39,784 nt of DNA from an uncultured Oscillospiraceae bacterium (lineage in GTDB: Bacteria > Bacillota > Clostridia > Oscillospirales > Oscillospiraceae): positions 1-39,784 of the forward strand of contig CALWWW010000022.1 of assembly GCA_944385365.1 (NCBI GenBank). The letters are read 5' to 3'. Below, one piece after another: positions 7,100-38,309 of this stretch. Below the pieces are notes generated by a model. That model worked only from the letters and a program-made list of their open reading frames with translations, ran no database searches and had not been told where the DNA came from. Each line of letters starts with the position of its first letter. The stretch's first letter is position 1. A program made the translations under genes and the position numbers.

Positions 7100-8464
7100 C
7101 TACGGGATCAGCATTTCGTAGGAATCCAGCACGGACATTTCCAGTGCTTCCTCCAGTTCCGCTGTGGAAATAGGCTCCTCCAGCAGTTCCGCCGTGGATA
7201 CGAAATACGGCCCGTCGCCCCGGTCCCGGAGCAGGAATGTGGGCCCCAGCGTAATGTGGCTGGTCTTTTGCCCAATGATCTCCGCTTCTCCTGGAAACAT
7301 ATCCAGCGTCTCCAGTGCCCGGATCATCCCTGCCTGCATCTTTTGGAGATAGGTGGGCTGATAGTACCCGCCGAACACTGTAAAATCCCGCAGAAAATAG
7401 AGTTCGAGAAAGTCGAGAAACATGGATGGAAGAAGCGCTCTCCGCTTGAATTTTTCGCAGATTGCCTCTGGTGTAAAGGGAACCGTCACCGTGCCGCCGT
7501 CCGAGTCTGTTCCAACCAGCAGCGTCTTCCTCTGTACCGTCTCCAGATGCATGGCAAACAGGACGCCGTGGCTGTCCAGGCCCCAGAAGAAGTGGGTGCC
7601 TGCCGAGACGCCCGTCCAACAGCCGGAAACCCCGTCCAGCTGCCCCATCAGGCAGTCCCGCAGCGGCGGATGGAACAGGAGCCGGTTCAGCAGTCCCTCC
7701 TCCTGCCGCAGGTCTTTCTGGAGGAGCTCCGAGACGATGTCCTCCATGGGCATCCACAGATACCGGGGACTCCGGTCAGTGAAATACCGCCGGGACAGCT
7801 GCTCATTGACCACTGTGGTCTGCACCCGATAGCTGCTGCAGAGCTGGGCCGCATCCGAGAGCAGGATATCACCATAAAATTCCGAGACCGCGCGGTACAT
7901 CGCAGGGCTGATACTCCCAAGCGTTTTCTCCTTCCAGAGCCGTTCCTGCGCCGCGTGAACCAAGGACGGGTCAACCCGCTCGATTCCGGCGACACAGGCG
8001 TGCTTCCTGCACAAGGGGAACAGAGGCAGCCGCAGTCTTTTTTCCGGGCACGCGCAGTCGTACAGCACGATTCCACGGGGATAAACGGTGTTTTTCAAAT
8101 TGACATTGGAGACGGCAAAGACAGGGACAATTCCTTCCCGTTCGCCGCTCTTTCGTAGCCATTGCTCGTAGAGCAGCGTGTCCTGCACACATCGGTAGTC
8201 AAAGGATAGATGGTGGTGATTTGCAGTGGACAGGCACCGTTGCCTGCGCAGCACCGCTGCTGCCCGCTCGGCGGTCTCCAGGCCGAATACCGGGCGCAGG
8301 TAGTCCCGGACCGCGTCGAGAAGGTCCTCCGAGGGCAGGATTTCCGGCAGCTTTCGGTGGCCGATCTGGCCCAGATAGTCCGCCAGGGAGCAGTCTCCGT
8401 ATTGTTCCAGCAACCGGTCAATGGCGGGATACGCCCGGCGAAGAGCCGCAATATTTTCGTTCAT
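7100..8464 (-). CDS. Unrecognised protein, last gene of operon A
   Basis: A 454-residue, largely soluble protein that I cannot assign to a family. Visible blocks are TANHHHLSFDY (80-90), a histidine cluster that could bind metal; VSNVNLKNTVYPRGIVLYD (118-136); and RYLWMPMEDIVSELL, followed by a region ending near GGYYQPTYLQKM. No signal peptide or clear membrane span is seen. Its ATG overlaps the stop of the MATE-transporter gene (ATGA), so it is translationally coupled to that gene and probably works with it or with the aminotransferase upstream. Unlike its neighbours it has no RsbW-like region that I can see. A biosynthetic or modifying enzyme acting on the transported compound is possible but is only a guess. 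Confidence 0.75.
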   Translation of the reverse strand: MNENIAALRRAYPAIDRLLEQYGDCSLADYLGQIGHRKLPEILPSEDLLDAVRDYLRPVFGLETAERAAAVLRRQRCLSTANHHHLSFDYRCVQDTLLYEQWLRKSGEREGIVPVFAVSNVNLKNTVYPRGIVLYDCACPEKRLRLPLFPLCRKHACVAGIERVDPSLVHAAQERLWKEKTLGSISPAMYRAVSEFYGDILLSDAAQLCSSYRVQTTVVNEQLSRRYFTDRSPRYLWMPMEDIVSELLQKDLRQEEGLLNRLLFHPPLRDCLMGQLDGVSGCWTGVSAGTHFFWGLDSHGVLFAMHLETVQRKTLLVGTDSDGGTVTVPFTPEAICEKFKRRALLPSMFLDFLELYFLRDFTVFGGYYQPTYLQKMQAGMIRALETLDMFPGEAEIIGQKTSHITLGPTFLLRDRGDGPYFVSTAELLEEPISTAELEEALEMSVLDSYEMLIP

Positions 8465-10227
8465 TTTGCCGCCTCCAGTCGGATGGACAGCACCGTATTG
8501 TTCAGATTCATAATCCGGGTATACGTCTTCTGGTCAGCCAGCCGCTCCAGCAAATTGATGTGATTCTTCCGCAAAATGTCCTCCTTGTCCTCGTATGTCA
8601 AAGGGTCAAACTGCTGACCGTTGTCCCGGATACGCACAATTAGATTTCCATCCTCCAGAAGGAGACAGATGTCAATGGTATCCACCTGCTTGCCGTGATG
8701 GATGATGTTGAGGGCCGCCTCCTCAAAGGCGATGGCCAGAAGATTTCCCTTGTTGCGGGGGATCTGATTCTGCTGGCAGAAATAGTCGATCTCCCGGTGG
8801 ATGTCTGCCACGCTTTCCGGCTTTCCCGCGATGGAAAAGGTGTGGCAGTCCGGGTCTCCACGGTCTCTCATGCCAAAGATCGCGATTTGTTTGTACCGAA
8901 TTTTTTCCCAGAGCCATGTGATGGCCAGGGAGAGGGCCTCCGTCAGGAAGCACCAGAGCGCCACAGTGGGCAGGCGGCTCACGTTCCATTGCACGATGGC
9001 CGCCACGGCCATCAGGAGAATCAGGATCTTACATACCATGTACTGGAGCATCAGCAGCAGCACCGACAAATTCTGCCGCTGGATCACGGGATAGAACCGG
9101 GCCAGCAGTTCATTGCACCAGAGAAACGGGAGGCTCAGCAGCATCATCCGGAACGCCAGAAGCGTATATGTCCCCGGTGCATCGGGATCAATGCCGTAGG
9201 TGCGGAGAAACGTCCCGGAAAAGGCCATCAGTACCACCATCACCATCGCCACAATGGCATAGGTGTATTTCAGCAGAATGGCCATCATCTTCCGGATGCC
9301 GAAAAAGTCCCGTTCGCCGAAGAGCATACTGCCCAGGCTGGAAATGGTCTGCAGGGCGCCGCCGGCCAGAATCCGGAGGACAAATTTCAGTCTGCCATAG
9401 ACGGCGTACAATGCCACACCGATGCTGCCGGTATAGCGCATCAGCAGCAGATTGACGATCAGTGTGGAAATAATCCGGGAGGCTTTGTCAACGGAGAAGG
9501 AGGCCGAAGCCGAGGCCAGCTCCCGGCACGTCTCCCGCAGGGCCTGAAACTCCCGGGTAAAGTGAAAGGTGCGCTTTTTGGACAGCAGATACGGAAGGCC
9601 CACAAGGATACCGGCGATATTGCCCATCATGGAAGCGGCGGAGGCCCCGGCCACGCCCATGTGCAGGAATTTCATCAGCACGATGTCCAGGACAATATTC
9701 ACCACATTTCCCGTGATCACCTGTGCCATGGCCAGCTTGGAGTGGTTGTCCAGAATGGCGAAGGCAGATATGAGCATATTGAGGGCGAAGAAAGGCGCGG
9801 CGGCGATGACAAAAAAGGTATACCGCCCCGCTTCCTCGGCGATGGCGCTGCCGCTGCCGGCCAGGAGCGTGCCAATATGGTCGCAGAACGGCAGCAGGCA
9901 CCAGCAGAGGGCACCGCCCAGCAGGGCGATCAGAAAGGACAGCGTAAACACCCCGTCGGCCTGTCGGTACTGCCGTTTGCCCAGCAGGATGCCCACCGCG
10001 ATGGGGCCTCCGGAGGAGATCACAAAGCCTGGAAATTCCGCAATGTCCACAAAGCTGTCGCAAAGGCCCGCGGCGGCCACGGCGTCGGCGCCCAGAATCC
10101 AGCCGATCAGCATAAAATCCACCACCAGGACCAGATAGGACGATGCCGTCACCACGGCGCCCACACCGAAAAACTCCCTGGTCTTGCTGCGTATGATCGC
10201 TTCATTTCGTTGATACGAATATCCCAT
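8461..10227 (-). CDS. MATE-family transporter with C-terminal RsbW-like ATPase domain
   Basis: 588 residues. The first ~450 form a 12-helix MATE (multidrug/toxin extrusion) transporter, an antiporter of the cytoplasmic membrane. The last ~135 residues are an RsbW/SpoIIAB-like GHKL domain. It keeps a complete N-box (FEEAALNIIHHG, about 501-512) and a G1-box (RIRDNGQQFDPL), but the usual glycine box is replaced by KNHINLLERLAD. The start follows GAGGAA at good spacing. The gene lies 16 nt after the aminotransferase and overlaps the unknown gene after it. Ordinary MATE proteins are about 450 residues, so the extra domain is a genuine fusion. I infer that a STAS protein (18601 or 31967) docks on this domain and gates transport. 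Substrate unknown. Confidence 0.88.
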   Translation of the reverse strand: MGYSYQRNEAIIRSKTREFFGVGAVVTASSYLVLVVDFMLIGWILGADAVAAAGLCDSFVDIAEFPGFVISSGGPIAVGILLGKRQYRQADGVFTLSFLIALLGGALCWCLLPFCDHIGTLLAGSGSAIAEEAGRYTFFVIAAAPFFALNMLISAFAILDNHSKLAMAQVITGNVVNIVLDIVLMKFLHMGVAGASAASMMGNIAGILVGLPYLLSKKRTFHFTREFQALRETCRELASASASFSVDKASRIISTLIVNLLLMRYTGSIGVALYAVYGRLKFVLRILAGGALQTISSLGSMLFGERDFFGIRKMMAILLKYTYAIVAMVMVVLMAFSGTFLRTYGIDPDAPGTYTLLAFRMMLLSLPFLWCNELLARFYPVIQRQNLSVLLLMLQYMVCKILILLMAVAAIVQWNVSRLPTVALWCFLTEALSLAITWLWEKIRYKQIAIFGMRDRGDPDCHTFSIAGKPESVADIHREIDYFCQQNQIPRNKGNLLAIAFEEAALNIIHHGKQVDTIDICLLLEDGNLIVRIRDNGQQFDPLTYEDKEDILRKNHINLLERLADQKTYTRIMNLNNTVLSIRLEAAK

Positions 10228-10243
10228 GCAAATTCCTCACGAA

Positions 10244-11590
10244 TCAAACGTTATCTGATTGCCCCTGCCACGCCGGCTGGGACAGGAGCAGCGGATCCGG
10301 TTCATACCCCGCCAGGACCTCGTCAATGGCTTCCTCCAGCCGTCGAAATCCTTCGCGCAGGGACTCCGGGCGGATGGTCAGTGGCGGCTGAAGGCGCAAA
10401 ACATTTCCTGAGACAACCAACAGCAAAAGGCCCTTTTCAAACGAACGGCAGGCGATCTTTGCCGCAGTCGCAGGGTCGCCCGTTCCCCCGCGGAGGACAT
10501 GGATGCCGTAGGACATCCCCGTCCCATAGGCTTTCAAGAGGATCCCCTGCCGCTTCCGGGATACCAGGGTCTTGACGCACTGTTCCATCCCGGTGCAGTT
10601 TTCTCGGAGCGCCGTCTGAAATTCCGGTTGACACATAAAATCAAACTGTGCAATTCCAGCGGCACAGGCCAGGTGGAAGCCGGAAATCGTATGCGCGCAG
10701 ATGGAAAAAGGCAGGACGTCCATGACCTCCGGGCGGGCCAGAAACGCACCCAGGGGCAATCCGCCCCCCAGGCTCTTTCCAAGGAGAATGCCGTCGGGAA
10801 TGATGCCATATTCCTCGATGCCGAACCAGCGGCCGCTGCGGAAAAAGCCCTGCTGCACCTCATCGGAAATGAAGAGGATTCCATGTTTTTTGCAGAGGGC
10901 ATAAAGCTGGCGAAGGAAGGCATGAGAAGCCGGGCGCAATCCACCGTCCCCCTGGATCGGCTCCACAAAGACCGCCGCCACCTCTTCCGGCGGAAAGTCC
11001 GTCCGGAATGCCTCTTCGATTTCGCGCAGATAGTGATAATCCGCCGGAAGCCCCTCATCCTCATAGTAGCATCGGAAATAGCGGATATCTGGCAGCATCA
11101 GGGAAACCTGCTCGCTTCCACCATCAAAACAGGCCGACAGACTGGCCCCGGCATAGCTACTGCCGTGGCAGGAATGGAGAAAACTGATGAACCGCTTCCG
11201 CCCGGTGCAGGTGCGGATCAGACGGACCGCAGTATCGCAGGCATCGGAGCCGCTGTGGGCAAAAAGGACCTTAACGGGAATTTTTCCGGGATAGATCGAT
11301 GCCAGCCGCTCGGCGTATTCCACCATAGGCTGGTTCGTGGTGTAGCAGGTGCAGTATTGCAGGCACTTTTCCAGCTGTGCCCGCACGGCCTCCATCACAT
11401 GCACGTCAGCGCCTCCCAGGTTCAGGGAGGATGCGCTGGCCATGAAATCCAGATAGCGGTTCCCGTCCAGATCTGTGACGATTTCCCCGTCCACCCGATC
11501 CACCGCCAGAGGATAATAGAGCAGATGCTGGCCCGAGGAAAGCACTGTCTGATCTCGCGCCAGCAAGTCACGGGATTTTTGTAAGTTCAT
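10244..11590 (-). CDS. Class III pyridoxal-phosphate aminotransferase
   Basis: 448 residues of the class III aminotransferase family (fold type I), cytosolic. Visible family marks are SGSDACDTAVRL (113-124, cofactor phosphate binding), HSCHGSSYAGASL (139-151), VEPIQGDGG (209-217), SDEVQQGF (242-249) with the Asp that contacts the pyridine ring, and LLGKSLGGGLPLGAF with the Schiff-base Lys at about 272. Family members transfer amino groups from omega-amino acids such as ornithine, GABA or diamines, or isomerise; the substrate cannot be read from sequence. It sits between the sugar-type ABC genes and the MATE/unknown pair, with GGAAAGGTG before its ATG. A role in making or degrading the compound moved by its neighbours is an inference. 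Confidence 0.9.
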   Translation of the reverse strand: MNLQKSRDLLARDQTVLSSGQHLLYYPLAVDRVDGEIVTDLDGNRYLDFMASASSLNLGGADVHVMEAVRAQLEKCLQYCTCYTTNQPMVEYAERLASIYPGKIPVKVLFAHSGSDACDTAVRLIRTCTGRKRFISFLHSCHGSSYAGASLSACFDGGSEQVSLMLPDIRYFRCYYEDEGLPADYHYLREIEEAFRTDFPPEEVAAVFVEPIQGDGGLRPASHAFLRQLYALCKKHGILFISDEVQQGFFRSGRWFGIEEYGIIPDGILLGKSLGGGLPLGAFLARPEVMDVLPFSICAHTISGFHLACAAGIAQFDFMCQPEFQTALRENCTGMEQCVKTLVSRKRQGILLKAYGTGMSYGIHVLRGGTGDPATAAKIACRSFEKGLLLLVVSGNVLRLQPPLTIRPESLREGFRRLEEAIDEVLAGYEPDPLLLSQPAWQGQSDNV

Positions 11591-11648
11591 GCAGGTTCAC
11601 CTTTCCGTGTCAATGCCGCAGCTCCGGTGCTGGAGGCGGCACACTTTA

Positions 11649-12635
11649 TCAGATTCGTTTCCGGCGGGGCGCGTAGGCCGCCACCAGCGCCAGGGCCAGC
11701 ACGCCGCCCTTGACCGCCGGCAGCACGTAGTAGACCACGCCCAGCTGGGTCAGTCCGTTTTCCAGCACCGCCACCAGGGCCGCGCCCACCAGGGTTCCCA
11801 AGGCGTTGGGCTTTTCGGCGCCGCCCACGGACCGCCCCACAAACACGGCGGCAAGGGACGGCATCAGGTAGCTGTCACAGCCGGAGATCTGCGCCGCCGA
11901 GTTGCGGGAACAGACCACAACGGCCCCCAGGGCAATCATGACAGCCGTGAGCATTCCGGCCAAAAAGCGGTACTTTCCCACGGCAATGCCGGAACAGGCC
12001 GCCGCTGTATGGTTGCTGCCCATAGCGTACAGGCAGCGGCCGTGGCGGGTGTAACGCAGGAACACAAATGCAAATGCAACACAGCCCAGCATAATGACGA
12101 TGCACCAGGGTGCCGCGCCGATGGCCAGGGACGCCTCCGTCCAGCTGGTACGGACCGGGGCCGCTCCCCAGGGCGTCGGCATACCGGCAGACACGGCGCC
12201 GCCGCCGGTCCACCAGAGGCCCAGGCCCTGATAGACAAACATCAGCGCGCAGGTGGCCAGCATATCGGGAATCCGGCAGACGAGGATGAGGAACATGGTC
12301 AAAAGATACAGCGCCATGGTCAGCACCACCGTGAGTCCAACACTCAGTCCCAGAGGCAGGCCAAACCACAAAAACAGGCTGGCATACAGGAAAGAAGAAA
12401 CTGTGGCCAGGTTACAGGCCGACATATCGAAACCGTCCGGTGCCATGGTCAGCGTGGCGCCGATGGCAAAAATCGTGGTAATAGACATGGACCGGAGGAT
12501 ATTGACGGCGTTGGCAGCAGAGAAAAAACTGCCGCCTCTCAGCAGGGCAAACACCGCCACCGATACCACCAGGGCAATGACCGCGGCCCAGTCCATGAGA
12601 AAACCGGTGATTCCCGGCTTTTGTAACTGTTTCAA
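11649..12635 (-). CDS. ABC transporter permease, ribose/xylose (RbsC) type
   Basis: About 328 residues with eight to ten hydrophobic segments. The block CSRNSAAQISGCDSYLMPSLAAVFVGRSVGG resembles the RbsC-family signature (P/A-x-x-G-x-x-Y-x-L-x-x-I-A-A-V-x-L-G-G). It forms the membrane channel for the ATPase at 12632 and the binding protein at 14198. I start it at TTG 12635, which overlaps the ATPase stop (TTGA) and has GGGGAGGA just upstream; a longer frame lies wholly inside the ATPase gene. Start choice is fairly secure, substrate unknown. Confidence 0.85.
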   Translation of the reverse strand: MKQLQKPGITGFLMDWAAVIALVVSVAVFALLRGGSFFSAANAVNILRSMSITTIFAIGATLTMAPDGFDMSACNLATVSSFLYASLFLWFGLPLGLSVGLTVVLTMALYLLTMFLILVCRIPDMLATCALMFVYQGLGLWWTGGGAVSAGMPTPWGAAPVRTSWTEASLAIGAAPWCIVIMLGCVAFAFVFLRYTRHGRCLYAMGSNHTAAACSGIAVGKYRFLAGMLTAVMIALGAVVVCSRNSAAQISGCDSYLMPSLAAVFVGRSVGGAEKPNALGTLVGAALVAVLENGLTQLGVVYYVLPAVKGGVLALALVAAYAPRRKRI

Positions 12636-14179
12636 AGATGGTCCTCCCCTTCTCGTGCCAAAACCGCGCGGAAGGGTTTCTTCCCACCGACGGCATAATG
12701 CATGATTTCCGCTTCCGAGGTGTGGGCAGCATCCAGCTCCGCAGCCACCCTTCCACCGTAGAGAACATAAATCCGGTCTGCGGCCTGCAGCAGTTCCGCC
12801 GGATCGGCGGAAGCATACAGGACGCCGCATCCGTCCTTTGCCAACCCGTCAATGACTCTGAGCAGCTCGGCTTTGGCGCCTACGTCCACACCTTTCATGG
12901 GTTCATCCAGCAGATAGAGTCGGCAGTTGGCTGAGAGCCACTTGCCCAGCACTGCCTTCTGCTGGTTACCGCCGGAGAGCAGCTCCATCCGCTGCCGCAG
13001 CATGGGCGGCTGGATGCCCAGAGTTTCGATCTGCGATTGTGCATTGCGATGGAGCATTCTGCTGGAAAGGAACGAAAAGCGGCTCCAGCGTCGAAGGCTG
13101 GCAATTCCCAGATGGAACGACACACTCTCCCCGGTAAACAGCCCTTCTTTCCGCCGCTCCTCCGGTACCAGGCCCATGCCCAGAGTTACCGCATCGGCCG
13201 GGCTTCGGGGCGATACGGGCCGCCCATCCAGCAAAACCTCTCCGGCGGAGCGGGGCAGAATACCGAAGAGCGTCTTGCACAGCTCACTTTTCCCCGCGCC
13301 CACCAGGCCGGCCAGACCAACGACCTCACCGCGGCCCACCGTCAAAGACACCTGCCGGACGCTGCCGTCACGGCTGGAAATATCCCGCACCGACAACAGC
13401 GTTTTGTTTGCCGACACCAAATCACGCCGTCGGACCGATGCCGTCGTGCCCAGCATATGCTCCAGCAGCACATCGGTGGTGGTCTCTGGTGTAATCGGTA
13501 CGCTGGCGGCAAATTTTCCGTTCCGAAGCACCGTGCACCGGTCACAGAGCCGCAGTATCTCCGGCAGGCGGTGGGAGATGAACACCACAGTAGTCTCCCT
13601 TTCCCGCACCAGGGCGCGGCAGAGAGAGAACAGCGTCTCCGTCTCCACAGCGCTCAGAGGCGCCGTAGGCTCATCCAGCAGGAGAATCTGACATTGGCTG
13701 TGGAGAGCCCGTGCAATGAGTACCATCTGCTTCTGGGCCAGGGTCAGCCGTCCCGCCGGCGTCCGGACGTCAAAGTCCAGATTCAACCGTTTTTTCAGTT
13801 CCTCTGCCTGCCGGTACACCTCCCGCCACCGGATCCACGTGCTTCCCGGCTGGCTCAGGTCGTCCAGCAGCATATTTTCCGCCGCCGACAGAGCCGGTGC
13901 CAGGGCCTGATCCGCCTCCTGGCAGACCAGGTGGATGCCCAGCTTTTTGGCCGCCGCGGGGCTGCGGAGTTCCACGGTCCGGCCGTCCAGCCAAACTTCC
14001 CCCGTATAGCCGGGATTGGTACCGGCAAGCACCTTCATCAATGTGGATTTTCCCGCGCCGTTAGCTCCCGCCAGGGCATGGATCTCCCCCGCTGCAAGCT
14101 GAAAGTCCACATGGTCCAGGGCCCTGACGCCAGTGAATTCCACGCTGATGTCCCGTGCCTTCAACAGATACGATTCCAT
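12632..14179 (-). CDS. ABC transporter ATPase with two nucleotide-binding domains, RbsA type
   Basis: 515 residues in two tandem nucleotide-binding domains, the layout of RbsA/MglA/XylG sugar importers. The first has Walker A GANGAGKST and Walker B ILLLDEPTAPLS, but its signature is TLAQKQM rather than LSGGQ. The second has a variant Walker A, GLVGAGKSE, the signature LSGGNQQKAVLGKWL and Walker B LYLLDEPMKGVD. One weakened site is usual for this subfamily. It powers the permease encoded next, whose start codon overlaps its stop. AAGGAG precedes the ATG. Sugars are the usual cargo, but nucleosides and autoinducer-2 are moved by the same subfamily. Confidence 0.9.
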   Translation of the reverse strand: MESYLLKARDISVEFTGVRALDHVDFQLAAGEIHALAGANGAGKSTLMKVLAGTNPGYTGEVWLDGRTVELRSPAAAKKLGIHLVCQEADQALAPALSAAENMLLDDLSQPGSTWIRWREVYRQAEELKKRLNLDFDVRTPAGRLTLAQKQMVLIARALHSQCQILLLDEPTAPLSAVETETLFSLCRALVRERETTVVFISHRLPEILRLCDRCTVLRNGKFAASVPITPETTTDVLLEHMLGTTASVRRRDLVSANKTLLSVRDISSRDGSVRQVSLTVGRGEVVGLAGLVGAGKSELCKTLFGILPRSAGEVLLDGRPVSPRSPADAVTLGMGLVPEERRKEGLFTGESVSFHLGIASLRRWSRFSFLSSRMLHRNAQSQIETLGIQPPMLRQRMELLSGGNQQKAVLGKWLSANCRLYLLDEPMKGVDVGAKAELLRVIDGLAKDGCGVLYASADPAELLQAADRIYVLYGGRVAAELDAAHTSEAEIMHYAVGGKKPFRAVLAREGEDHL

Positions 14180-14197
14180 GCTGCGCTCCTTATCCCA

Positions 14198-30118: not shown

Positions 30119-31165
30119 ATGGGAACTACCGCAATACAGGAAATCGTCCCGCGGATTCTGCGGGATATGCGCGACGGCGTCCTGGTGCTGGATATGCAGG
30201 GCAACATCCTGTATCTGAACGACCAGGGACGGGCGTTGCTGGGCACGGATCAGAACTGTACAGGGCTGAAATACACGGCAGCCTTTTGGGAACAGAATGC
30301 AGATGGACGAAACGATGATTTTCACCAGTTTGTCCTGGACGCCGTCTATGACAAGGAACACGCGCACAGCGGCGAGGCATCCTACACCCCCCGAGGCCAG
30401 GAGGAACGCCGGTTCCGGCTGACCTCCTCCTTCCTCCACAGCGAGGACGGGACCAAAAAAATCGGCATTGTGGTGCTGTTTTCAGACATCACCGAGACCG
30501 CGCGGCTCCACCAGCAGCGCCGGGAGTCCTCCATTGTCTTTGCGGTGCTGATGATCTGCGTCTGCGTATACCTGTTCCTCTGGAGCCTGCTGCGCTATCT
30601 GGACGCTGAGCCGCCCGGATGGGTGATGAATCTGATGATCGAGGGCATTTCGGTCATTATGTTTTTCATCGTCCTGAAAACCACTTCCTTTTCCATTCGG
30701 GACATCGGCCTGCGGATCACCAACGCAAAGGCCACCTTCGTTCCGGACATTCTTATCACCCTGGGCGCCTGCGCCGTCCTGGTGGGTGGAAAGGTCGTGC
30801 TGCTCCGGGTCGCGCCTGGCTTCTTCCCGGAAGGGGCGCCCTTCTGGGACTGGAGCGTCGGCACCTTTGCCGATGTGATCTATCCGCTGACCGTAATCCT
30901 GCAGGAATTTCTGGCCCGCGGCGTCATGCAGGAGAACCTCCGAAGAATCTTCACGGGAAAGCACGCCGCCGCCCTCTCCATCATTGTGTCAGCCCTGGTC
31001 TTCGGCGTGCTCCATATTGCCTACGGTTTCATGTTTATGGTGGGAGCTACGCTGCTGCTAGGCGTGATGGGCATATTTTACCATAAGCAGGGCAACATCT
31101 GGGGCCTGTGCATCATCCACTATGTGCTGGGGGAGGTGGCATCATTTCTGCGCTATATCATCTGA
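30119..31165 (+). CDS. PAS-domain protein fused to a CPBP (CAAX-protease-like) membrane domain
   Basis: 348 residues. The first ~125 form a PAS-type sensory domain (RDMRDGVLVLDMQGNILYLN, GRALLG, IGIVVLFSDITE). The rest has about seven membrane helices of the CPBP/Abi family, with motif 1 as LQEFLARGVMQENLRR, motif 2 VFGVLHIAYG and motif 3 IIHYVLGEV. Motif 1 usually begins with two glutamates; here the first is Gln. CPBP proteins are intramembrane glutamate proteases that cut prenylated or bacteriocin-like proteins, or act as scaffolds. A PAS sensor on a CPBP domain is unusual. The ATG at 30119 has GAGGAG 8 nt before it. Its 3' end overlaps the next frame. Confidence 0.8.
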   Translation: MGTTAIQEIVPRILRDMRDGVLVLDMQGNILYLNDQGRALLGTDQNCTGLKYTAAFWEQNADGRNDDFHQFVLDAVYDKEHAHSGEASYTPRGQEERRFRLTSSFLHSEDGTKKIGIVVLFSDITETARLHQQRRESSIVFAVLMICVCVYLFLWSLLRYLDAEPPGWVMNLMIEGISVIMFFIVLKTTSFSIRDIGLRITNAKATFVPDILITLGACAVLVGGKVVLLRVAPGFFPEGAPFWDWSVGTFADVIYPLTVILQEFLARGVMQENLRRIFTGKHAAALSIIVSALVFGVLHIAYGFMFMVGATLLLGVMGIFYHKQGNIWGLCIIHYVLGEVASFLRYII

Positions 31166-31950
31166 AGATTTCATCCTTCAACGGGGTCTGGTGGGCTGTT
31201 ATGGCGGTGATTGCGGCAGCCACCATGGGAATCTGGTTTTACCGCCGGCGGCTCTCCGAACAGGAAAACTGGAAATTTTTAACGGTGCTGTCAGCGTTTA
31301 CGATCGTCTATCTGGCAGTCTATAAAGTTCTGCTGGCGTTCAGCCCGGCATACGAATTTGTGATTTGGAATGAGCTGCCCCTGTATCCATGCAACATCGT
31401 GGCGCTTCTGACACTCCCCGCCACCCTGCTCCACGGACGGGCCGGGCGCCTGCTGAAGGCATTCTGCTTCTACGCCGGAATCGTGTTCACGCCTGTGGCA
31501 ATGACCATGCCGGTGACAGGCTTTGGGGACGTACCGCTGCTTTCCGTAAACGCCATCGGCTTCTATGGTTTTCATGGTCTGCTGCTGGTGTTGTCCATCA
31601 GCTTCGGCACCCTGAAAGTCTACCGGCCCGCGTTCCGAGATATCCCAGGTGTCCTGCTGGTGCTGATGCTCCTGGCCCTGCCGGTGCACGGCGTCTGTAT
31701 GCTGCTGCGGGCCACCGTGTATCCGGAGGCGAACTACTTTTATACCTATGGCCTGGCCGGAAATCCGATTTTGGAGGGGCTGAAGGGCCTGATCCCCATC
31801 CCGCTGGTCTACCAGCTGCCGCTGCTGCTGGTTATGGCAGCGCTCTGTGCAATCATTACACTGCTGTTCCGGGGCGTCCGGAACCTGGCCGCTCGTCGGA
31901 ATCAGAACGGTGCCTGCAGGTCGGACGCCAAAGAAACATATCTATCCTGA
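31108..31950 (+). CDS. YwaF/TMEM164-like integral membrane protein
   Basis: Up to 280 residues with about seven membrane helices. Family marks are ELPLYPCNIVALLTLPATLL, the repeated small-residue and His blocks GFYGFHGLLLVLSISFGTLK, and NYFYTYGLAGNPILEGLKGL, typical of the YwaF (TIGR02206) / TMEM164 group. TMEM164 is a lipid acyltransferase in animals; bacterial members are uncharacterised. The start is uncertain: the frame opens at ATG 31108 inside the previous gene, while the best ribosome site (GGGGGAGGTGG, 31129-31139) points to ATC/ATT codons at 31141-31146, and ATG 31201 would cut into the first helix. It precedes the STAS gene by 16 nt. Confidence 0.75.
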   Translation: MHHPLCAGGGGIISALYHLKISSFNGVWWAVMAVIAAATMGIWFYRRRLSEQENWKFLTVLSAFTIVYLAVYKVLLAFSPAYEFVIWNELPLYPCNIVALLTLPATLLHGRAGRLLKAFCFYAGIVFTPVAMTMPVTGFGDVPLLSVNAIGFYGFHGLLLVLSISFGTLKVYRPAFRDIPGVLLVLMLLALPVHGVCMLLRATVYPEANYFYTYGLAGNPILEGLKGLIPIPLVYQLPLLLVMAALCAIITLLFRGVRNLAARRNQNGACRSDAKETYLS

Positions 31951-31966
31951 AAACGGAGGTTATCCT

Positions 31967-32263
31967 ATGAACATCATCAAGAAAACGGAAGGTACCACCC
32001 TGGCGCTGGTTCTGGAGGGCCGGCTGGACACCACCACCGCCCCGCAGCTGGAGACGGAGCTGAAAAGTAGCCTGGACGGCGTGACGGCGCTGGATCTGGA
32101 TTTTGAGAAGCTGGAGTATCTGTCTTCCGCCGGCCTGCGGGTTCTGCTGGCCGCTCAGAAGGTGATGAACAAACAGGGAACCATGGTAATCCACCATGTG
32201 AACGACACCATCCACGAGGTGTTCGAGGTGACGGGCTTTCTGGACATCCTGACCATCGAATAA
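31967..32263 (+). CDS. STAS-domain anti-sigma-factor antagonist (SpoIIAA/RsbV-like), copy 2
   Basis: 98 residues, same length as copy 1 and about 83% identical by my count. It keeps EGRLDTTTAPQLETEL, the phosphorylatable serine region LEYLSSAGLRVLLAAQK, and the end EVFEVTGFLDILTIE. Differences cluster in the first 18 residues and around 72-84, which may tune partner choice. ACGGAGG lies before its ATG. It is followed after 12 nt by lactate dehydrogenase and then by three genes whose products carry RsbW-like domains. It should be the substrate of the SpoIIE-RsbW protein at 36276 and could cross-talk with operon A. Confidence 0.92.
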   Translation: MNIIKKTEGTTLALVLEGRLDTTTAPQLETELKSSLDGVTALDLDFEKLEYLSSAGLRVLLAAQKVMNKQGTMVIHHVNDTIHEVFEVTGFLDILTIE

Positions 32264-32275
32264 GGGGTTTTCCGC

Positions 32276-33244
32276 ATGAAGATTGCAGTCATTGGCAATG
32301 GAAACGTAGGTATGGCCGCCTTTGGTGAGCTTCTTCGAATGCCGGAAATCCGCGAACTGGCCCTGGTAGGCCGGAACGTGGAGCGGATCCGGGCAGAAGT
32401 AGAGGACTACGCCGACGCGCAGGTGCTTCACACGGCACCGGGCGTCAAGCTCTCCGGCGGCGGCTATGAGAAAACGGCGGGCGCCGACATTCTCCTCTAC
32501 ACCGCCGGAGCGGCCCAGAAGCCGGGCCAGACGCGGCTGGAGCTGGCGGCGGAAAACGTCCGCATCACACGGCAGATCTTCGGTGAAGTCAGCCGCTATA
32601 ACCGGGACGGCATCGTAATCTGCCTGAGCAACCCGGTGGACCTGATTACCGCCGTGGTGCGCGACTGCACCGGACGTCCGCCGGAAAAAGTCATTGGCAC
32701 CGGCACGCTGCTGGACACCGCCCGCCTGAAAAAATATCTGTCCAACCTTCTGGACGTGTCATCCGCCTCGGTGACGGCCTATGTGCTGGGTGAACACGGC
32801 GACAGTTCCTGCGTGATCTGGAGTGCTACCCGGATTTCCGGTCAGCCGGTGGACAGCTATCTCTCCTTTTCCCTGGAAGATGAAGCCCATATCCGCCGGC
32901 AGGCCATGGCCGGCATGGTACGAGGCAGCGCGGGGAAACTCATCCGCGCCAAGGGTTCTACCGCCTACGGCGTGGCTGCCGCGGCTAGTCGGCTGGTACA
33001 GGCCATCATCCATGACACGCGGGATATTCTGACCGTGTCCGTGGAACTGGGAGGCGCGTATGGCAAAAACGGATTGGCCATATCCGTTCCCTGCATCGTG
33101 GACCGCCAGGGTGCCCGTGTGGCGGCGGAGCTGCCCATGTCCGAGGACGAACGGCAGGCGTTTGACGCTTCCGCCGACGTGGTTGCCGCCATCACCAAGA
33201 ACTTTATCGAGAAAGGATCCGATGGAAACGATGAAATCCAATGA
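32276..33244 (+). CDS. ldh: L-lactate dehydrogenase
   Basis: 322 residues of the lactate/malate dehydrogenase family: NAD-binding start KIAVIGNGNVGMAA, loop YTAGAAQKPGQTR, LSNPVDLIT, IGTGTLLDTARL, and the catalytic GEHGDSS. The Gln before Lys-Pro-Gly in the substrate loop is the residue that selects pyruvate over oxaloacetate, so lactate dehydrogenase is more likely than malate dehydrogenase. It interconverts pyruvate and lactate with NADH in the cytosol. It lies inside operon B between the STAS gene and the RsbW-VOC gene, overlapping the latter by 23 nt, so its dosage is tied to the regulatory genes. No regulatory domain is fused to it. Confidence 0.85.
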   Translation: MKIAVIGNGNVGMAAFGELLRMPEIRELALVGRNVERIRAEVEDYADAQVLHTAPGVKLSGGGYEKTAGADILLYTAGAAQKPGQTRLELAAENVRITRQIFGEVSRYNRDGIVICLSNPVDLITAVVRDCTGRPPEKVIGTGTLLDTARLKKYLSNLLDVSSASVTAYVLGEHGDSSCVIWSATRISGQPVDSYLSFSLEDEAHIRRQAMAGMVRGSAGKLIRAKGSTAYGVAAAASRLVQAIIHDTRDILTVSVELGGAYGKNGLAISVPCIVDRQGARVAAELPMSEDERQAFDASADVVAAITKNFIEKGSDGNDEIQ

Positions 33245-34409
33245 AATTGCGTTATCCAACAGCCTGTCCTGCGCTGTAAACGCGCTGCAGACCGTGGAAC
33301 AGGCCTCCGAACAGGCTGGCTTCAGCCGGGAGCAGACCAATATTCTGCGGCTTTTGACCGAGGAAATGATCGCCATGACCACTGATATCCTGCAGGAGTG
33401 CAAGGGCTCTCTGTGGATGGAATGGGAAGGCACGGCCTGTGAACTGCATCTGACCGCCGTGGCGCCCATGGAAGAAGCGGCAAAGGCTGCCTTCATCGAG
33501 GCGTCCAGAGCCAAGGTGAACACCCCCGTCAAGGGCCTGAAAAACCGGATCAGTGCCCTGCTGGCCGGGATGCTCAGCAGTGTGAACAGCCCGGAGCTGT
33601 ACGCCGCCATGAGCGCGGGTTTTGTCGGCGGTATACCGTCCATGCCCTCGATGCGGACCTGGTCCCTGGCCGCCTATGCGGAAAACCAGAAGCAGGACCA
33701 AAAGGACGCCGAACTGGAAGGTGTGGAAAAATCCATTCTGACCGGCCTTGCCGACGATGTGGTGGTGTCGGTCAAAAACAACTGGGTGGAGCTGGTCGTC
33801 CGGAAAGCTTTCAACGCACCGGCTCAGGCTGCCATGCCGCGGTTTACAGGACTTTCCCATGTGTGCATCTTTGTGGATGATATGATGGAAGCGGCCGCCT
33901 ATTATCAGAAGCTGCTGGGCGCCGTGCCGGACCACTACCTCTCCCACTGGAGAAACAAGGGTTTCTTCCAGGCCGGCGGTTTTGTACGGGAGGCCAAGGA
34001 CGGTGATGTCTCCATCGCTTTTTTGAATGTGCCCGGCACGAAGCTGACGCTGGAGCTCATGCAGTACCACTATCCGGAGGGCCGCAAAGAGCCGGTGATT
34101 TTCGCCGCCAACGATGTCAGCGGCGCCCGGCACGTGGCGTTGAAGATCACCAATATTGAAGAGGCATTCGAGCACATCAAATCCATGCCCGATACGAGGC
34201 TCATCAATGAAACAGACGAGTATCGGGTATTCCAGATCAGTGAGACGCAGCCCTCGGAGGTGCGCTTCTTTGATCAGGATCTGCGGGAAAGCGATGAGCG
34301 GAATGTACAGACGGCCAAAATCCTCAGCGGGGTGCGGTATTTCTACTTTATTGACAAGTACGGCCTCCAGTGGGAATTCGAACAGGGCCACAGTGACATC
34401 GGCGACTGA
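33222..34409 (+). CDS. RsbW-like domain fused to a VOC (glyoxalase-fold) domain
   Basis: 395 residues. The first ~195 resemble a strongly altered RsbW domain: REQTNILRLLTEEMIAMTTDIL at the N-box position (Asn replaced by Met), LHLTAVAPM at the D-box, and the closing strand VKNNWVELVVRK. From about 205 to the end there is a vicinal-oxygen-chelate fold (LSHVCIFVDDMMEAAAYYQK, FYFIDKYGLQWEFEQG), as in glyoxalase I, dioxygenases and epimerases. Several of the usual metal ligands are hard to place, so catalysis is unproven. The start ATG follows GAAAGGA and lies inside the lactate dehydrogenase gene. The fusion fits the local pattern of RsbW-like domains attached to effectors; a STAS-controlled enzyme or ligand sensor is an inference. 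Confidence 0.72.
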   Translation: METMKSNEIALSNSLSCAVNALQTVEQASEQAGFSREQTNILRLLTEEMIAMTTDILQECKGSLWMEWEGTACELHLTAVAPMEEAAKAAFIEASRAKVNTPVKGLKNRISALLAGMLSSVNSPELYAAMSAGFVGGIPSMPSMRTWSLAAYAENQKQDQKDAELEGVEKSILTGLADDVVVSVKNNWVELVVRKAFNAPAQAAMPRFTGLSHVCIFVDDMMEAAAYYQKLLGAVPDHYLSHWRNKGFFQAGGFVREAKDGDVSIAFLNVPGTKLTLELMQYHYPEGRKEPVIFAANDVSGARHVALKITNIEEAFEHIKSMPDTRLINETDEYRVFQISETQPSEVRFFDQDLRESDERNVQTAKILSGVRYFYFIDKYGLQWEFEQGHSDIGD

Positions 34410-34481: not shown

Positions 34482-36227
34482 ATGAAAACAGCCGCACGGG
34501 AAGCCGTGTTTGTCAGAAAATCCTTTTACAGCTTCTTTCTTCCAAGCCTTCTCTCCTGTCTAGGAATCGCTGCCGGCGGACTGGCGGACTGCATTTTCGT
34601 AGGCAACGCCATCGGTCCTGTGGGCATGACGGCCATCAGCATTGGACAACCCATCTATATGCTGTTCAACACCATCAGCTATTCCCTCTCCATCGGCGGC
34701 TCCATCCACTACGCCAACGCCCTCAGTGAGGGAAAGGAAGAGGAAGGGAACCGGATCTTCGCCAACGTCCTGCGGACCGACCTCTTCCTCAACCTGGCCC
34801 TCTGCATTCTGGGTCTGCTGTTTCTGCCCCAGGTGCTCACGTTTCTGGGTGCCGGCGAACCTGGGACGGAGGTCTGGGCCAACTGTGAGGCACTGGTCCG
34901 CGCCCAGCTGATTCTGGTGCCCGTCATGTTCTGCCAGGGGCCGTTTTACTACTTTGTCAACTGCGACAATGACCCGAAGCTGGCCGCGGTGGCATTTGTG
35001 ACCAGCAATACGCTGGACATTGTCTTTAACTACATCTTCGTGGTTCTACTGGATCTGGGCGTTGCTGGCTCAGTCTACTCCACGGGCATCGGCGCCGCCG
35101 TCATGATCCTCATCAGCCTGATCCACTTTGCGAAAAAGTGCGGATGTCTCCGGTTCTGCTGGCCCAGGTATCAGCTCCGCTCCGTGTGGAACTTCTTCCG
35201 CACCGGATTTGCCACATCCGTGCAGTACGTCTATCAATTCATCACCATTCTGGTCTGCAATCACCTGCTCATGTCCATCAGCGGCGAGCTGGGCGTAGCC
35301 GTGTTCGGGATTGTGTTCAATGTGGCCCTGGTGGCCGCGTCGATCTATGACGCCATCAGTATGGCCCTGCAGCCCATGGTGAGCACCTTCCACGGCGAAC
35401 GCAACAAATCCAACATCCGATGCACGCTGAAACAGTGCTTCAAGGTATCCATGGTGGTCAATCTTGTGATCGTTGCGCTCCTGACCGCAGTACCGCAATG
35501 GATCAGCTTTGCCTTCGGTCTGCGGACCGAGGCGGAACTGGCCATGGGAAGTACTGCCATCCGCATTTACGCTCTGTGCGTTATCCCGTCCGGAATCAAC
35601 ATGGTGCTGACCTACTACTACCAGGCACTGGGGCGGGAGTCCGTCAGTTATCTGCTGTTCACCCTGCGCTCCTTTGTCTTCTTTCTGGGATTCAGCCTCC
35701 TCTTCAGTCTTGGCGGGATCCACCTGTTCTGGTGGACCTATCCCTGCATGGAGCTTGCTTCCCTTGCGGTGCTGGCCATCTACAACCGGCTGCACGGCAC
35801 GTGGACCTATCTGGAGGAGGACGACAGCCGGGTATTCAGCGCCTTTGTGGAGAGCCGGGACGCGGATCTTGGCGCGGTAAGCAAGGATGTTTCCGAATAC
35901 CTGGAAGGAATCCACGCCACAGCCATGCAGGGGTATTTTGCCGCAATCGCCGTGGAAGAGGTGTGCGCGCTGGTTCTGGGCCAGCCCTTCCCTTCCGGCG
36001 AAGGGTACATCCAGTTCACCATTGTACCCCATGAGGACGGGACCGTGACCCTCCATCTGCGCGACAACGCCAAGGCATTCAATCCCTTTGACATGGACAC
36101 GGAGGGAATCAGCCTGGAGGAGGGCAGCGGGCTGGACGCCCTTGGAATCAAAATGATTAAGAACAAGGCAAAGGAATTCTTTTATCGGCGGTATGCCGGC
36201 TTCAACACTCTGGTCATCCGGGTGTAA
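34482..36227 (+). CDS. MATE-family transporter with C-terminal RsbW-like domain, copy 2
   Basis: 581 residues: a 12-helix MATE transporter (FYSFFLPSLLSCLGIAAGGL, FVGNAIGPVGMTAIS, NCDNDPKLAAVAFV) up to about 445, then a ~132-residue RsbW-like domain. In that domain the N-box reads VEEVCALVLGQPF (Asn lost), the D-box LRDNAKAFNPFDM (Gly replaced by Ala), and the G-box GLDALGIKMIKNKA is partly kept. The tail ends FNTLVIRV like the others. So it has the same architecture as the protein at 8461 but a more decayed ATP site. ATG 34482 has AGAGAGG 12 nt before it. It lies between the RsbW-VOC gene and the SpoIIE-RsbW gene. Cargo unknown. Confidence 0.87.
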   Translation: MKTAAREAVFVRKSFYSFFLPSLLSCLGIAAGGLADCIFVGNAIGPVGMTAISIGQPIYMLFNTISYSLSIGGSIHYANALSEGKEEEGNRIFANVLRTDLFLNLALCILGLLFLPQVLTFLGAGEPGTEVWANCEALVRAQLILVPVMFCQGPFYYFVNCDNDPKLAAVAFVTSNTLDIVFNYIFVVLLDLGVAGSVYSTGIGAAVMILISLIHFAKKCGCLRFCWPRYQLRSVWNFFRTGFATSVQYVYQFITILVCNHLLMSISGELGVAVFGIVFNVALVAASIYDAISMALQPMVSTFHGERNKSNIRCTLKQCFKVSMVVNLVIVALLTAVPQWISFAFGLRTEAELAMGSTAIRIYALCVIPSGINMVLTYYYQALGRESVSYLLFTLRSFVFFLGFSLLFSLGGIHLFWWTYPCMELASLAVLAIYNRLHGTWTYLEEDDSRVFSAFVESRDADLGAVSKDVSEYLEGIHATAMQGYFAAIAVEEVCALVLGQPFPSGEGYIQFTIVPHEDGTVTLHLRDNAKAFNPFDMDTEGISLEEGSGLDALGIKMIKNKAKEFFYRRYAGFNTLVIRV

Positions 36228-36275: not shown

Positions 36276-38309
36276 ATGAGGTCCAAGGTGAAGTTTTCAT
36301 TAGGGAAAAAGTTGACGATCCTCATCGTGCTGATGAGCGTGGTCCTGAGCCTGACGGCAATATTTGTGAGCTACCGGGTGTTCACTTCCAACATGACGGC
36401 GTACTACGAGACGCTGGCAACAAATCTAGTACGCACCCTGGCCAGCCAGCTGGATGCGGACGATCTGGACCATTACTACGAAACCGGCGAAATGGACGAG
36501 GACTACTATGCCACTCAGGATTTCATCCGGGACCTGGTGGACAGCAACGACGTGGAGTACCTCTATGTGGTCCGTCCCCACGGGACGGGGGTCACCTTCC
36601 TCTTTGACTCTGACATGGAAACCGGCGAGGGCGGTGAGTATGAGGACGGCGGCTACTGCGCCCTGGGCACCTACGTGGACCTGGTGGGAGATTTCCAAAA
36701 GAATCTGGACAACCTCCTGGCAGGGCGGCCGGTGGACCCCATCGTCCAGTGGGACGAGAGTTTCGGCTGGCTCATGACCGCCATGACGCCGGTGCTGCAC
36801 GACGACGGCACCATGGCCGGCTACGTGATGGCAGACATCAGCATGAACGCGGTGATGAATACCCAGCGAACGTTTCTGATCGCTCTGGCGGCGCTGCTGG
36901 CGGTTCTGACCATCGGGTTTATCGTGTTGTTCCTTCTGGTGATGCGCAAAAAGGTGATCCGCCCCATCGACCAGCTGACCCAGGCCACAGGCGCCTTTAT
37001 CCAGAACAACGAGGCGGAACTGGCCGCCGGTACCGCCTGTGTCAACGTGCCGGAAATCCGCACCGGCGACGAGGTGGAGCTGCTGGCGAATTCCTTCCGC
37101 AAAATGGAGGAGGACATGATCTCCTACATCCGCAGCTTCATGGCCATCACCGCGGAGAAGGAGCGCATCGGCGCCGAGCTGAACGTGGCCACCCAGATTC
37201 AGGCGGATATGCTGCCCCGGATCTTCCCCGCTTTCCCGGAACGGTCGGAATTTGATATTTACGCCAGCATGACCCCGGCCAAGGAAGTGGGCGGCGACTT
37301 CTACGACTTCTTCCTGGTGGACGACGATCATCTGGCCATGGTGATTGCCGACGTTTCCGGAAAAGGCGTGCCCGCGGCACTGTTCATGGTGATCGCCAAG
37401 ACGCTGCTGAAAAACGCCGCCCAGACGGGCCTGTCCCCCAAGGCGGTCCTCGAAAAGGTTAACAACCAGCTGTGCGAAAACAACGAGGCTGAGATGTTTG
37501 TCACCGTATGGCTGGGATTCTATGAGATCTCCACCGGCCGTCTGACCGCAGCCAACGCAGGCCATGAGCATCCCGCCATTCAACGGGCCAATGGGGACTT
37601 TGAACTCTTCAAGGACCGTCACGGTTTTGTACTGGCCGGCATGGAAAACGCCCGGTACCGGGAGTACGAATTGGAGCTGGGCCTTGGCGACACCCTGTTT
37701 GTGTATACGGACGGTGTGGCAGAAGCTACGGACAGCGCCAACACCCTCTATGGAACGGACCGGATGCTGGAGGCGTTGAACTGCGGCCGAAACCAGGTGC
37801 CGGAAGAACTGCTGCGGTATGTGAAACAGGACATTGACCGGTTTGTGGGAGGCGCTCCCCAGTTTGACGACATCACCATGCTGGCCATCCGCCGGCGGGA
37901 CACAGGGAAAGAGACTATGAAAAAATGCAGTGTTGAGCCAAAATTGGAGAGCATCGGAGCAGTCAGTGAATTCTTTGAGCAGGAACTGGCAAACCATCAG
38001 GCTCCGCCAAAGGTAATCGCTCAAGTCAATGTGGCCATTGACGAGATCTTCTCCAACATTGCCCGGTACAGTGGCGCCACATCTGCCACTGTGGGCTGTG
38101 AGGTAGAAGCAGGCCATGCCGTTCTCCGTTTTGCCGACAATGGCAGGCCCTATGATCCCACCCAGCAGCCCGATCCGGACACCACCCTGGGGGCCGAGGA
38201 ACGGGACATCGGCGGTCTGGGTATCTTCATGGTGAAAAAGACCATGGACTGCATTACCTATGCGTACACCGACGGCATGAATGTGCTGACCATTGAAAAG
38301 AGCTGGTAA
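36276..38309 (+). CDS. SpoIIE-type PP2C phosphatase with extracytoplasmic sensor, HAMP and RsbW-like kinase domain, copy 2
   Basis: 677 residues. Membrane helix 1 (about 12-32) and helix 2 (199-223) flank a ~165-residue outside domain of Cache-like size. A HAMP-like region (about 224-290) follows, then a SpoIIE phosphatase (305-525; KEVGGDFYD, IADVSGKG, YTDGVAEATD, QFDDITM) and a complete RsbW-like ATPase (545-677; IDEIFSNIARYSG, RFADNGRPYDP, IGGLGIFMVKKTMD). The cytoplasmic part is close to copy 1 (16784), but the sensor is of a different kind, so the two probably set the same STAS proteins in response to different signals. GGGGAGGA lies 6 nt before ATG 36276. It is the last gene of operon B. 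Confidence 0.92.
   Translation: MRSKVKFSLGKKLTILIVLMSVVLSLTAIFVSYRVFTSNMTAYYETLATNLVRTLASQLDADDLDHYYETGEMDEDYYATQDFIRDLVDSNDVEYLYVVRPHGTGVTFLFDSDMETGEGGEYEDGGYCALGTYVDLVGDFQKNLDNLLAGRPVDPIVQWDESFGWLMTAMTPVLHDDGTMAGYVMADISMNAVMNTQRTFLIALAALLAVLTIGFIVLFLLVMRKKVIRPIDQLTQATGAFIQNNEAELAAGTACVNVPEIRTGDEVELLANSFRKMEEDMISYIRSFMAITAEKERIGAELNVATQIQADMLPRIFPAFPERSEFDIYASMTPAKEVGGDFYDFFLVDDDHLAMVIADVSGKGVPAALFMVIAKTLLKNAAQTGLSPKAVLEKVNNQLCENNEAEMFVTVWLGFYEISTGRLTAANAGHEHPAIQRANGDFELFKDRHGFVLAGMENARYREYELELGLGDTLFVYTDGVAEATDSANTLYGTDRMLEALNCGRNQVPEELLRYVKQDIDRFVGGAPQFDDITMLAIRRRDTGKETMKKCSVEPKLESIGAVSEFFEQELANHQAPPKVIAQVNVAIDEIFSNIARYSGATSATVGCEVEAGHAVLRFADNGRPYDPTQQPDPDTTLGAEERDIGGLGIFMVKKTMDCITYAYTDGMNVLTIEKSW

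What the first reader, a model, noticed from the sequence alone, without database searches (positions are those of the whole stretch)
8461..38309. A partner-switching system whose RsbW-like domains are built into transporters and an enzyme
Seven proteins in two operons carry an RsbW/SpoIIAB-like domain: two MATE transporters (C-terminal), a dicarboxylate/amino-acid symporter (N-terminal), a complete ABC transporter (C-terminal), a VOC-domain protein (N-terminal) and two SpoIIE phosphatases (C-terminal). Two STAS antagonists sit between them. Known circuits (RsbU/V/W, SpoIIE/AA/AB) control sigma factors, but none is encoded here. The inferred output is direct control of transport and metabolism by STAS docking. 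I know of no described system of this form.
Basis: partly seen in the sequence, partly recalled or inferred. Interest (0 to 1): 0.92.

Follow-up and report, generated by a model that had tools for sequence, protein, structure and literature searches.

The report
Transporters wearing dead RsbW receiver domains
A gut bacterium carries a phosphorylation switch of the kind that normally controls gene expression, but here the switch's docking domain, with most of its ATP-binding signature lost, is built into membrane transporters and a metabolic enzyme, which suggests that bacteria can use it to turn transport on and off directly.

The parts
8461..10227 (-). MATE1 transporter with C-terminal RsbW-type domain (domain 8464-8856); N-box Asn and G1 kept, G2 lost
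   Evidence: Pfam MatE 1.4e-20, HATPase_c_2 8.7e-9; motif table
16784..18604 (-). SpoIIE-type phosphatase 1, hydrophobic N-terminus (by eye), with C-terminal RsbW-type kinase domain (16787-17182), kinase motifs kept
   Evidence: Pfam SpoIIE 2.3e-49, HATPase_c_2 1.8e-16
18601..18897 (-). STAS1, single-domain anti-sigma-antagonist type, presumed phospho-acceptor Ser54
   Evidence: Pfam STAS 6.5e-14; Ser54 and Asp21 in 95 of 95 distinct aligned STAS
18916..22317 (-). One-chain polar amino-acid type ABC importer (solute-binding domains, permease, ATPase) with C-terminal degenerate RsbW domain (18919-19314)
   Evidence: Pfam, NCBIfam GlnQ best, hhalign 97.5-98.3% to kinases
22323..23939 (-). Dicarboxylate/amino-acid type (SLC1/SDF) symporter with N-terminal degenerate RsbW domain (23535-23927)
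   Evidence: NCBIfam GltP 1.2e-18, below its cut-off; hhalign 96.9-97.6% to kinases; model with the GHKL order of elements
31967..32263 (+). STAS2, 81 of 98 residues identical to STAS1
   Evidence: NCBIfam ant_ant_sig 2.7e-19
33222..34409 (+). VOC-domain protein (methylmalonyl-CoA epimerase-like) with N-terminal degenerate RsbW domain (about 33231-33815)
34482..36227 (+). MATE2 transporter with C-terminal degenerate RsbW domain (35817-36224)
   Evidence: Pfam MatE 3.9e-29, HATPase_c_2 0.0023; hhalign 99.2%
36276..38309 (+). SpoIIE-type phosphatase 2 (N-terminal region with weak, sub-cut-off HAMP and Cache hits) with C-terminal RsbW-type kinase domain (37911-38306), kinase motifs kept
   Evidence: Pfam SpoIIE 1.8e-51, HATPase_c_2 1e-17
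7100..16758 (-). Rest of the minus-strand operon: CstA (15340-16758), sugar-type ABC binding protein, ATPase and permease (11649-15343), class-III aminotransferase (10244-11590), MATE1 and an unknown 454-aa protein (7100-8464): possible cargo
   Evidence: Pfam, packed gene order
30113..33244 (+). Start of the plus-strand operon: PAS-CPBP protein (30113-31165), TMEM164-like membrane protein (31108-31950), STAS2, lactate/malate dehydrogenase-like protein (32276-33244)
   Evidence: Pfam; same order in L104/L156 (one contig fetched twice) and L157

Best explanation
This is a partner-switching system whose outputs are transporters and an enzyme rather than a sigma factor. Each of the two operons encodes a membrane SpoIIE-type phosphatase that carries an intact RsbW-type kinase domain on the same chain; it sets the phosphorylation of Ser54 of a small STAS protein. 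Unphosphorylated STAS then docks on a degenerate RsbW domain (a 'receiver' with a vestigial ATP site) built into MATE1/2, the SLC1-type symporter, the one-chain ABC importer and the VOC protein, and changes their activity; phosphorylation releases it. Shown: domain folds, kinase motifs kept in one set and mostly lost in the other, conservation, linkage, selection, no conserved sigma factor. Inferred: enzyme activities, STAS docking, its dependence on phosphorylation, and the effect on transport, whose sign is unknown.
For: Fold of all seven domains. Kinase boxes kept in 78 of 78 SpoIIE-linked or free kinase domains; in fused domains the N-box Asn is kept in 9/45 MATE, 1/20 symporter and 0/15 ABC, with G1/G2 mostly lost, yet the N-box Glu (or Asp) is kept in 80/80. 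In the SypA-SypE model a Glu of the kinase bonds the STAS serine (PMC10120452); that it is the N-box Glu is my inference. Fused MATE, ABC and symporter domains form one clade, 87 of 87, support 0.979; median dN/dS 0.07-0.23. STAS Ser54 in 95/95. Linkage within 9 kb: VOC_H domains near STAS in 24/26; fused MATE near a SpoIIE phosphatase in 16/30, fused symporters 5/14, against 0/20 unfused symporters. Mixed operons: L248 STAS-SpoIIE/kinase-symporter-ABC; L243 MATE-VOC_H-STAS-SpoIIE-kinase. Own genome: besides these two STAS genes only one beside SpoIIAB and a sigma factor (spoIIA type) and one in a 545-aa frame.
Against: No interaction was tested. 12 of 30 fused MATE and 6 of 14 fused symporters have no STAS, SpoIIE or kinase within 9 kb (some lie near contig ends). 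Fused symporters have STAS nearby in only 5 of 14, unfused ones in 3 of 20, those three being spoIIA-type loci. G741 (96% complete) has a fused MATE but no kinase-profile or SpoIIE match and one partial STAS; G749 has no kinase match but its own MATE. An Arg recalled to bind STAS in SpoIIAB is not conserved in the fused domains, though SpoIIE2's kinase domain lacks it too (by eye). None of 23 fused symporters has the NMDG-type motif of SLC1 transporters, which fits a sensor as well as a regulated transporter. MATE1 keeps N-box and G1, so it may still bind nucleotide.
Confidence: 0.62

Rival explanations
1. The fused domains are inputs, not outputs: transporter-like sensors bind or release STAS according to substrate and so tune a circuit whose real target is elsewhere (for example a sigma factor or another STAS client).
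For: None of 23 fused symporters has the NMDG-type substrate/ion motif (motif recalled); transporter-fused kinases that act as sensors exist (recalled: CbrA).
Against: The SpoIIE proteins already carry N-terminal membrane regions (by eye); the ABC importer keeps its ATPase motifs (by eye) and the VOC enzyme its four presumed metal ligands in every row that covers them (10 or 11); the fused domains have mostly lost the kinase motifs needed to pass a signal on; a sigma-like ORF is in the stretch in only 6 of 89 loci.
Confidence: 0.16
2. The degenerate domains pair with the active SpoIIE-linked kinase domain (RsbW and SpoIIAB are dimers), tethering or tuning the SpoIIE protein at transporters; STAS does not dock on them.
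For: Same fold as a dimeric kinase (PMC10120452, passages, states the dimers); pseudokinase-kinase pairing is common elsewhere (recalled). Fused MATE lie near a phosphatase gene (16/30) slightly more often than near STAS (12/30).
Against: VOC_H proteins are near STAS in 24 of 26 loci but near STAS plus a phosphatase or kinase gene in 19 (several contigs are cut short, so this is weak).
Confidence: 0.12
3. The fused domains are nucleotide- or energy-sensing regulatory domains that act without STAS.
For: GHKL fold; MATE1 keeps N-box and G1; orphan fusions without local STAS or SpoIIE.
Against: ATP-binding motifs are gone in the symporter and ABC copies and most MATE copies; linkage to STAS/SpoIIE.
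Confidence: 0.05
4. A classical sigma-factor circuit whose sigma factor lies elsewhere in the genome, the fusions being decoys that hold STAS.
For: 18 Sigma70_r2 matches exist elsewhere in the genome.
Against: No sigma-like ORF in the stretch in 83 of 89 loci, and none within 1 kb of STAS in the other six; among the loci fetched, sigma within 600 bases of STAS was seen only in the four spoIIA-type loci.
Confidence: 0.05

Closest known systems
RsbU/RsbV/RsbW and SpoIIE/SpoIIAA/SpoIIAB partner switches (Bacillus)
   Same: PPM phosphatase, STAS protein with conserved serine, RsbW-fold kinase
   Different: No conserved sigma factor in the loci; phosphatase and kinase on one chain; extra RsbW-fold domains, ATP motifs mostly lost, fused to transporters and an enzyme
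SiaABCD, HsbA-HsbD, BgrV-BgrR (PMC8457831, passages)
   Same: A STAS or STAS-like protein acts directly on an enzyme; SiaA is the best NCBIfam match of the SpoIIE proteins (below its cut-off), and SiaB is among the structural neighbours of the VOC N-terminal domain
   Different: Target there is a diguanylate cyclase; no RsbW-derived receiver domain on the target is mentioned in the passages seen
SypE-SypA of Vibrio fischeri (PMC10120452, passages)
   Same: STAS as the downstream output; kinase and phosphatase on one chain
   Different: Target unknown; no fused transporters in the passages seen
SipA-sigmaSsdA of Actinoplanes (PMC10733313, passages)
   Different: There STAS is fused and the target is a sigma factor; here the RsbW-type partner is fused, and to transporters and an enzyme
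SLC26/SulP transporters with STAS domains
   Same: A partner-switching domain on a transporter
   Different: There the STAS domain is fused; here the RsbW-type partner is

Membership tests
RsbU/V/W-type partner-switching system | SpoIIE/PPM phosphatase | tested here: met
   Pfam SpoIIE 2.3e-49 and 1.8e-51
RsbU/V/W-type partner-switching system | STAS protein with conserved phospho-acceptor serine | tested here: met
   Ser54 in 95 of 95 distinct aligned STAS; equivalence to SpoIIAA Ser58 recalled
RsbU/V/W-type partner-switching system | RsbW-type kinase with N, G1 and G2 boxes | tested here: met
   78 of 78 SpoIIE-linked or free domains
RsbU/V/W-type partner-switching system | sigma factor as linked target | tested here: not met
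   none in the window; sigma-like ORF in 6 of 89 related loci, none within 1 kb of STAS (queries: 12 of the genome's 18 sigma matches)
RsbU/V/W-type partner-switching system | phosphorylation-dependent binding | not testable with these tools
RsbW/SpoIIAB serine kinases (the five fused domains) | RsbW fold | tested here: met
RsbW/SpoIIAB serine kinases (the five fused domains) | ATP/Mg motifs (N-box Asn, G1, G2) | tested here: not met
   no window copy has all: lost in MATE2, symporter and ABC; MATE1 keeps N-box Asn and G1 but not G2; the VOC domain was not in that table, its N-box Asn is absent in alignment A2 by eye
SiaC/HsbA-type direct STAS output | STAS binds and modulates a non-sigma target | not testable with these tools
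   inferred only
SLC1/SDF symporters | fold and homology | tested here: met
SLC1/SDF symporters | NMDG-type substrate/ion motif (motif recalled) | tested here: not met
   absent in 23 of 23 fused symporters

The most novel reading that the evidence does not exclude
Clostridia possess a general post-translational signalling module: a degenerate RsbW domain family with one common ancestor that serves as a plug-in receiver for phospho-regulated STAS proteins, shuffled onto unrelated transporters and enzymes, as REC domains are in two-component systems.
Probability: 0.45. Interest if true: 0.9.

Novelty: new variant of a known kind. Interest (0 to 1): 0.8.

Why it matters
Partner switching is taught as a way to control sigma factors, with a few enzyme targets known. 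If docking is shown, many gut Clostridia would have a direct, transcription-free phospho-switch on amino-acid import, drug or metabolite export and metabolism, read out by a receiver domain recognisable by sequence. It would also explain why transporters in these bacteria carry an extra domain that Pfam largely misses, and give a way to predict targets of STAS proteins from genome sequence.

Tried and rejected
Pfam and NCBIfam alone missed the ABC, symporter and VOC domains. A first VOC_H profile of 12 rows gave no clear match (5-53%); with 42 rows it rose to 81-94% against the fused families but only 24% against the kinases, so it rests on the model (mean pLDDT 65.8; about 70-90 over most of residues 1-80, 52-72 over 81-180). 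Foldseek alone ranks glyoxalases first for that model and SpoIIAB 22nd (E 0.0028); the second look by VIA-align puts RsbW first. The SpoIIAB Arg contact (recalled) was looked for in the fused domains and not found conserved. An IQ-TREE run timed out, FastTree was used; the clade of fused domains could be helped by long branches. A first dN/dS script timed out. The symporter's nearest PDB entries 9bgy/9bgz are a reconstructed ancestral aspartate transporter and say nothing on the fused domain. Rfam: 0 families in the window.

One search sorted the reading frames and one search repeated the test with 12 sigma proteins of this genome (of 18 matches): 6 of 89. As a control it found the sigma gene within about 500 bases of STAS in the genome's own spoIIA-type locus (L154) and in the three STAS-bearing control loci (L256, L260, L261).

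Literature: ten searches; four gave no paper; in the rest no listed title or abstract told of such fusions (one search listed 10 of 2,326, 25 of 27, 8 of 20). Only open-licence PMC papers are held, so absence is weak. I read passages of five papers, no whole text; PMC12826045 describes an RsbW-like domain on a response regulator, no transporter.

Counts to read with care: loci L046-L125 were found with SpoIIE1 as query (best 80 of 465 relatives), so their linkage to SpoIIE is by design and was not counted. Contigs fetched twice (for example L032/L046, L033/L050, L104/L156, L048/L158, L171/L231) count twice among the 89 loci; exact duplicate domains were dropped, and near-duplicates before the tree. 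MATE contexts were fetched for 37 of the places listed; 30 of them hold fused MATE genes (one, L216, split in two frames; L246 partial). dN/dS used the closest 25 pairs per family, of which 14-25 were usable.
Full report
What is there. The window is contig 22 of a 2.58-Mb, 91% complete draft genome. One genome of its family, G133, gave a contig (C64, 23,169 bases, L032) with the length and gene layout of DVLB01000007.1, Candidatus Galloscillospira stercoripullorum (L046), which NCBI places in Oscillospiraceae, Clostridia. Two divergent operons carry the system. Minus strand, 23939 to 7100: symporter with N-terminal domain, one-chain ABC importer with C-terminal domain, STAS1, SpoIIE1 with C-terminal domain, CstA, a sugar-type ABC system, a class-III aminotransferase, MATE1 with C-terminal domain, an unknown protein. 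Plus strand, 30113 to 38309: PAS-CPBP protein, TMEM164-like protein, STAS2, a lactate/malate dehydrogenase-like protein, VOC protein with N-terminal domain, MATE2 with C-terminal domain, SpoIIE2 with C-terminal domain. That each set is one operon is inferred from packing and strand.

Kinases and non-kinases. In one alignment the N-box Glu and Asn, G1 Asp and Gly and the three G2 glycines are present in 78 of 78 SpoIIE-linked or free kinase domains. In the fused domains the N-box Asn survives in 9 of 45 MATE, 1 of 20 symporter and 0 of 15 ABC copies; the G1 Asp in 30, 0 and 0; the ABC copies have gaps at the first G2 glycine (15 of 15), while 39 of 45 MATE copies keep the third. The N-box Glu (Asp in five symporters) survives in 80 of 80, and the Asn of the last strand in 158 of 158 of all. 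In the VOC family two adjacent glutamates at the corresponding place are invariant in 40 rows. In the published SypA-SypE model a kinase glutamate (Glu48) bonds the STAS serine (PMC10120452, passages); I take it to be the N-box Glu. The fused domains have thus mostly lost what an ATP-using kinase needs and kept a residue that a STAS partner is expected to touch; the second half is inference. MATE1 is the least degenerate.

One receiver family. A FastTree tree of 159 domains plus SpoIIAB puts all 87 fused domains in one clade (support 0.979), with MATE (55) as one clade (0.91) and ABC plus symporter (32) as another (0.909) (VOC not included, long-branch effects possible). Domain position differs (C-terminal in MATE and ABC, N-terminal in the symporter), so the domain has been shuffled. 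Median dN/dS of the domains is 0.227 (symporter), 0.178 (ABC), 0.104 (VOC) and 0.065 (MATE), against 0.168, 0.107, 0.085 and 0.098 for the partner domains: they are under purifying selection.

Distribution and linkage. Symporter fusions occur in 12 of 150 family genomes, this one included, matching from residue 22 or earlier at 28-77% identity; the other matches start at residue 130 or later. The VOC fusion was found in 3 of 295 genomes of the order, this one included; 24 further places hold the VOC_H domain without the VOC domain. The MATE-domain profile, which also picks up kinases, matched 60 of 391 genomes of the class; in the contexts fetched, 30 fused MATE came from 24 genomes of 13 families. 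Within 9 kb: VOC_H domains had STAS in 24 of 26 and a SpoIIE phosphatase in 15 of 26; fused MATE 12 and 16 of 30; fused symporters 5 and 5 of 14; unfused symporters of the same family 3 and 0 of 20, those three STAS being in spoIIA-type loci. The queries contained no STAS or SpoIIE. Of 14 genomes in which some fused gene lacked a local STAS, phosphatase or kinase, 8 have a strong kinase domain somewhere (E below 1e-30), G772 one about 16 kb away (3.5e-15), G107 a weak one, and G019, G113, G741 and G749 none apart from a self match (further checks 76, 77). G741 is a clear orphan. Mixed operons such as L248, L243, L062, L104, L113 and L123 hold several fusions with STAS and SpoIIE genes.

Output. 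Among 89 loci with a fused or VOC_H protein and STAS, 6 hold a sigma-like ORF in the stretch, none closer than 1 kb to STAS; the same test finds the sigma gene beside STAS in four spoIIA-type loci (which replaces the faulty). In this genome the STAS matches are the two in the window, one beside SpoIIAB and a sigma factor, and one in a 545-aa frame. STAS Ser54 and Asp21 are invariant in 95 distinct STAS. Known topology of MATE and SLC1 proteins (recalled) puts these domains in the cytoplasm. The VOC enzyme keeps four presumed metal ligands in all rows that cover them, and the ABC ATPase keeps its motifs by eye, which suits regulated effectors; the NMDG-type motif is absent in 23 of 23 fused symporters, which leaves room for a sensor role.

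Reading and novelty. I hold that SpoIIE-kinase proteins read membrane signals and set STAS phosphorylation, and STAS gates the fused proteins directly (0.62). The sign of control is unknown. Direct STAS outputs on enzymes are known (SiaC-SiaD, HsbA-HsbD, BgrV-BgrR: PMC8457831, passages); STAS and RsbW domains as fused docking modules are known for a sigma factor (SipA-sigmaSsdA, PMC10733313, passages); the review of STAS-only proteins (PMC8256260, passages) tells of sigma-factor and unknown-target cases. I found no paper with RsbW-type receivers on transporters. Hence: new variant of a known kind, with the modular receiver as the new element.

Noticed in passing
22326-23939 and 22 relatives: None of 23 fused SLC1-type symporters has the NMDG-type motif of known transporters: different substrate, different coupling, or a sensor.
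   Followed up: partly
L042:5704-7305, L161-L165, L167, L170, L171 (again as L231), L174, L175, L177, L180, L221, L224: Sixteen ORFs (one fetched twice) join a STAS domain to an intact RsbW-type kinase domain; the one tested (L042) has an aminoglycoside-phosphotransferase-like (APH) middle domain.
   Followed up: partly
7100-8464: Unknown 454-aa protein without Pfam or NCBIfam match; its only relative in the fetched loci follows a MATE1-type gene (L062:3140-4495).
   Followed up: partly
2275-3558, 5579-7027, 25406-26692, 26924-28243: Four similar membrane GHKL proteins around the operons; Pfam HATPase_c_5 was found in the two tested, the other two look alike by sequence.
   Followed up: no
15340-16758; L032, L048, L049, L064, L068, L104: CstA lies downstream of SpoIIE1 in several relatives, so it may belong to the circuit although it has no receiver domain.
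   Followed up: no
L104/L156, L157: In relatives ABC-fusion, PAS-CPBP, TMEM164-like, STAS, dehydrogenase and VOC-fusion stand in one operon, so the window's two operons may be a split or duplicated single one.
   Followed up: partly
L035, L119: Tandem copies of the fused symporter.
   Followed up: no
L099:7469-11263: MATE fusion and SpoIIE-kinase read as one frame of 1265 aa, whereas L111 has two overlapping genes.
   Followed up: no
24392-25114: GGDEF-like ORF, apparently cut short, upstream of the symporter.
   Followed up: no
39071-39784: Start of an integrase-like gene at the right end of the contig (by eye).
   Followed up: no
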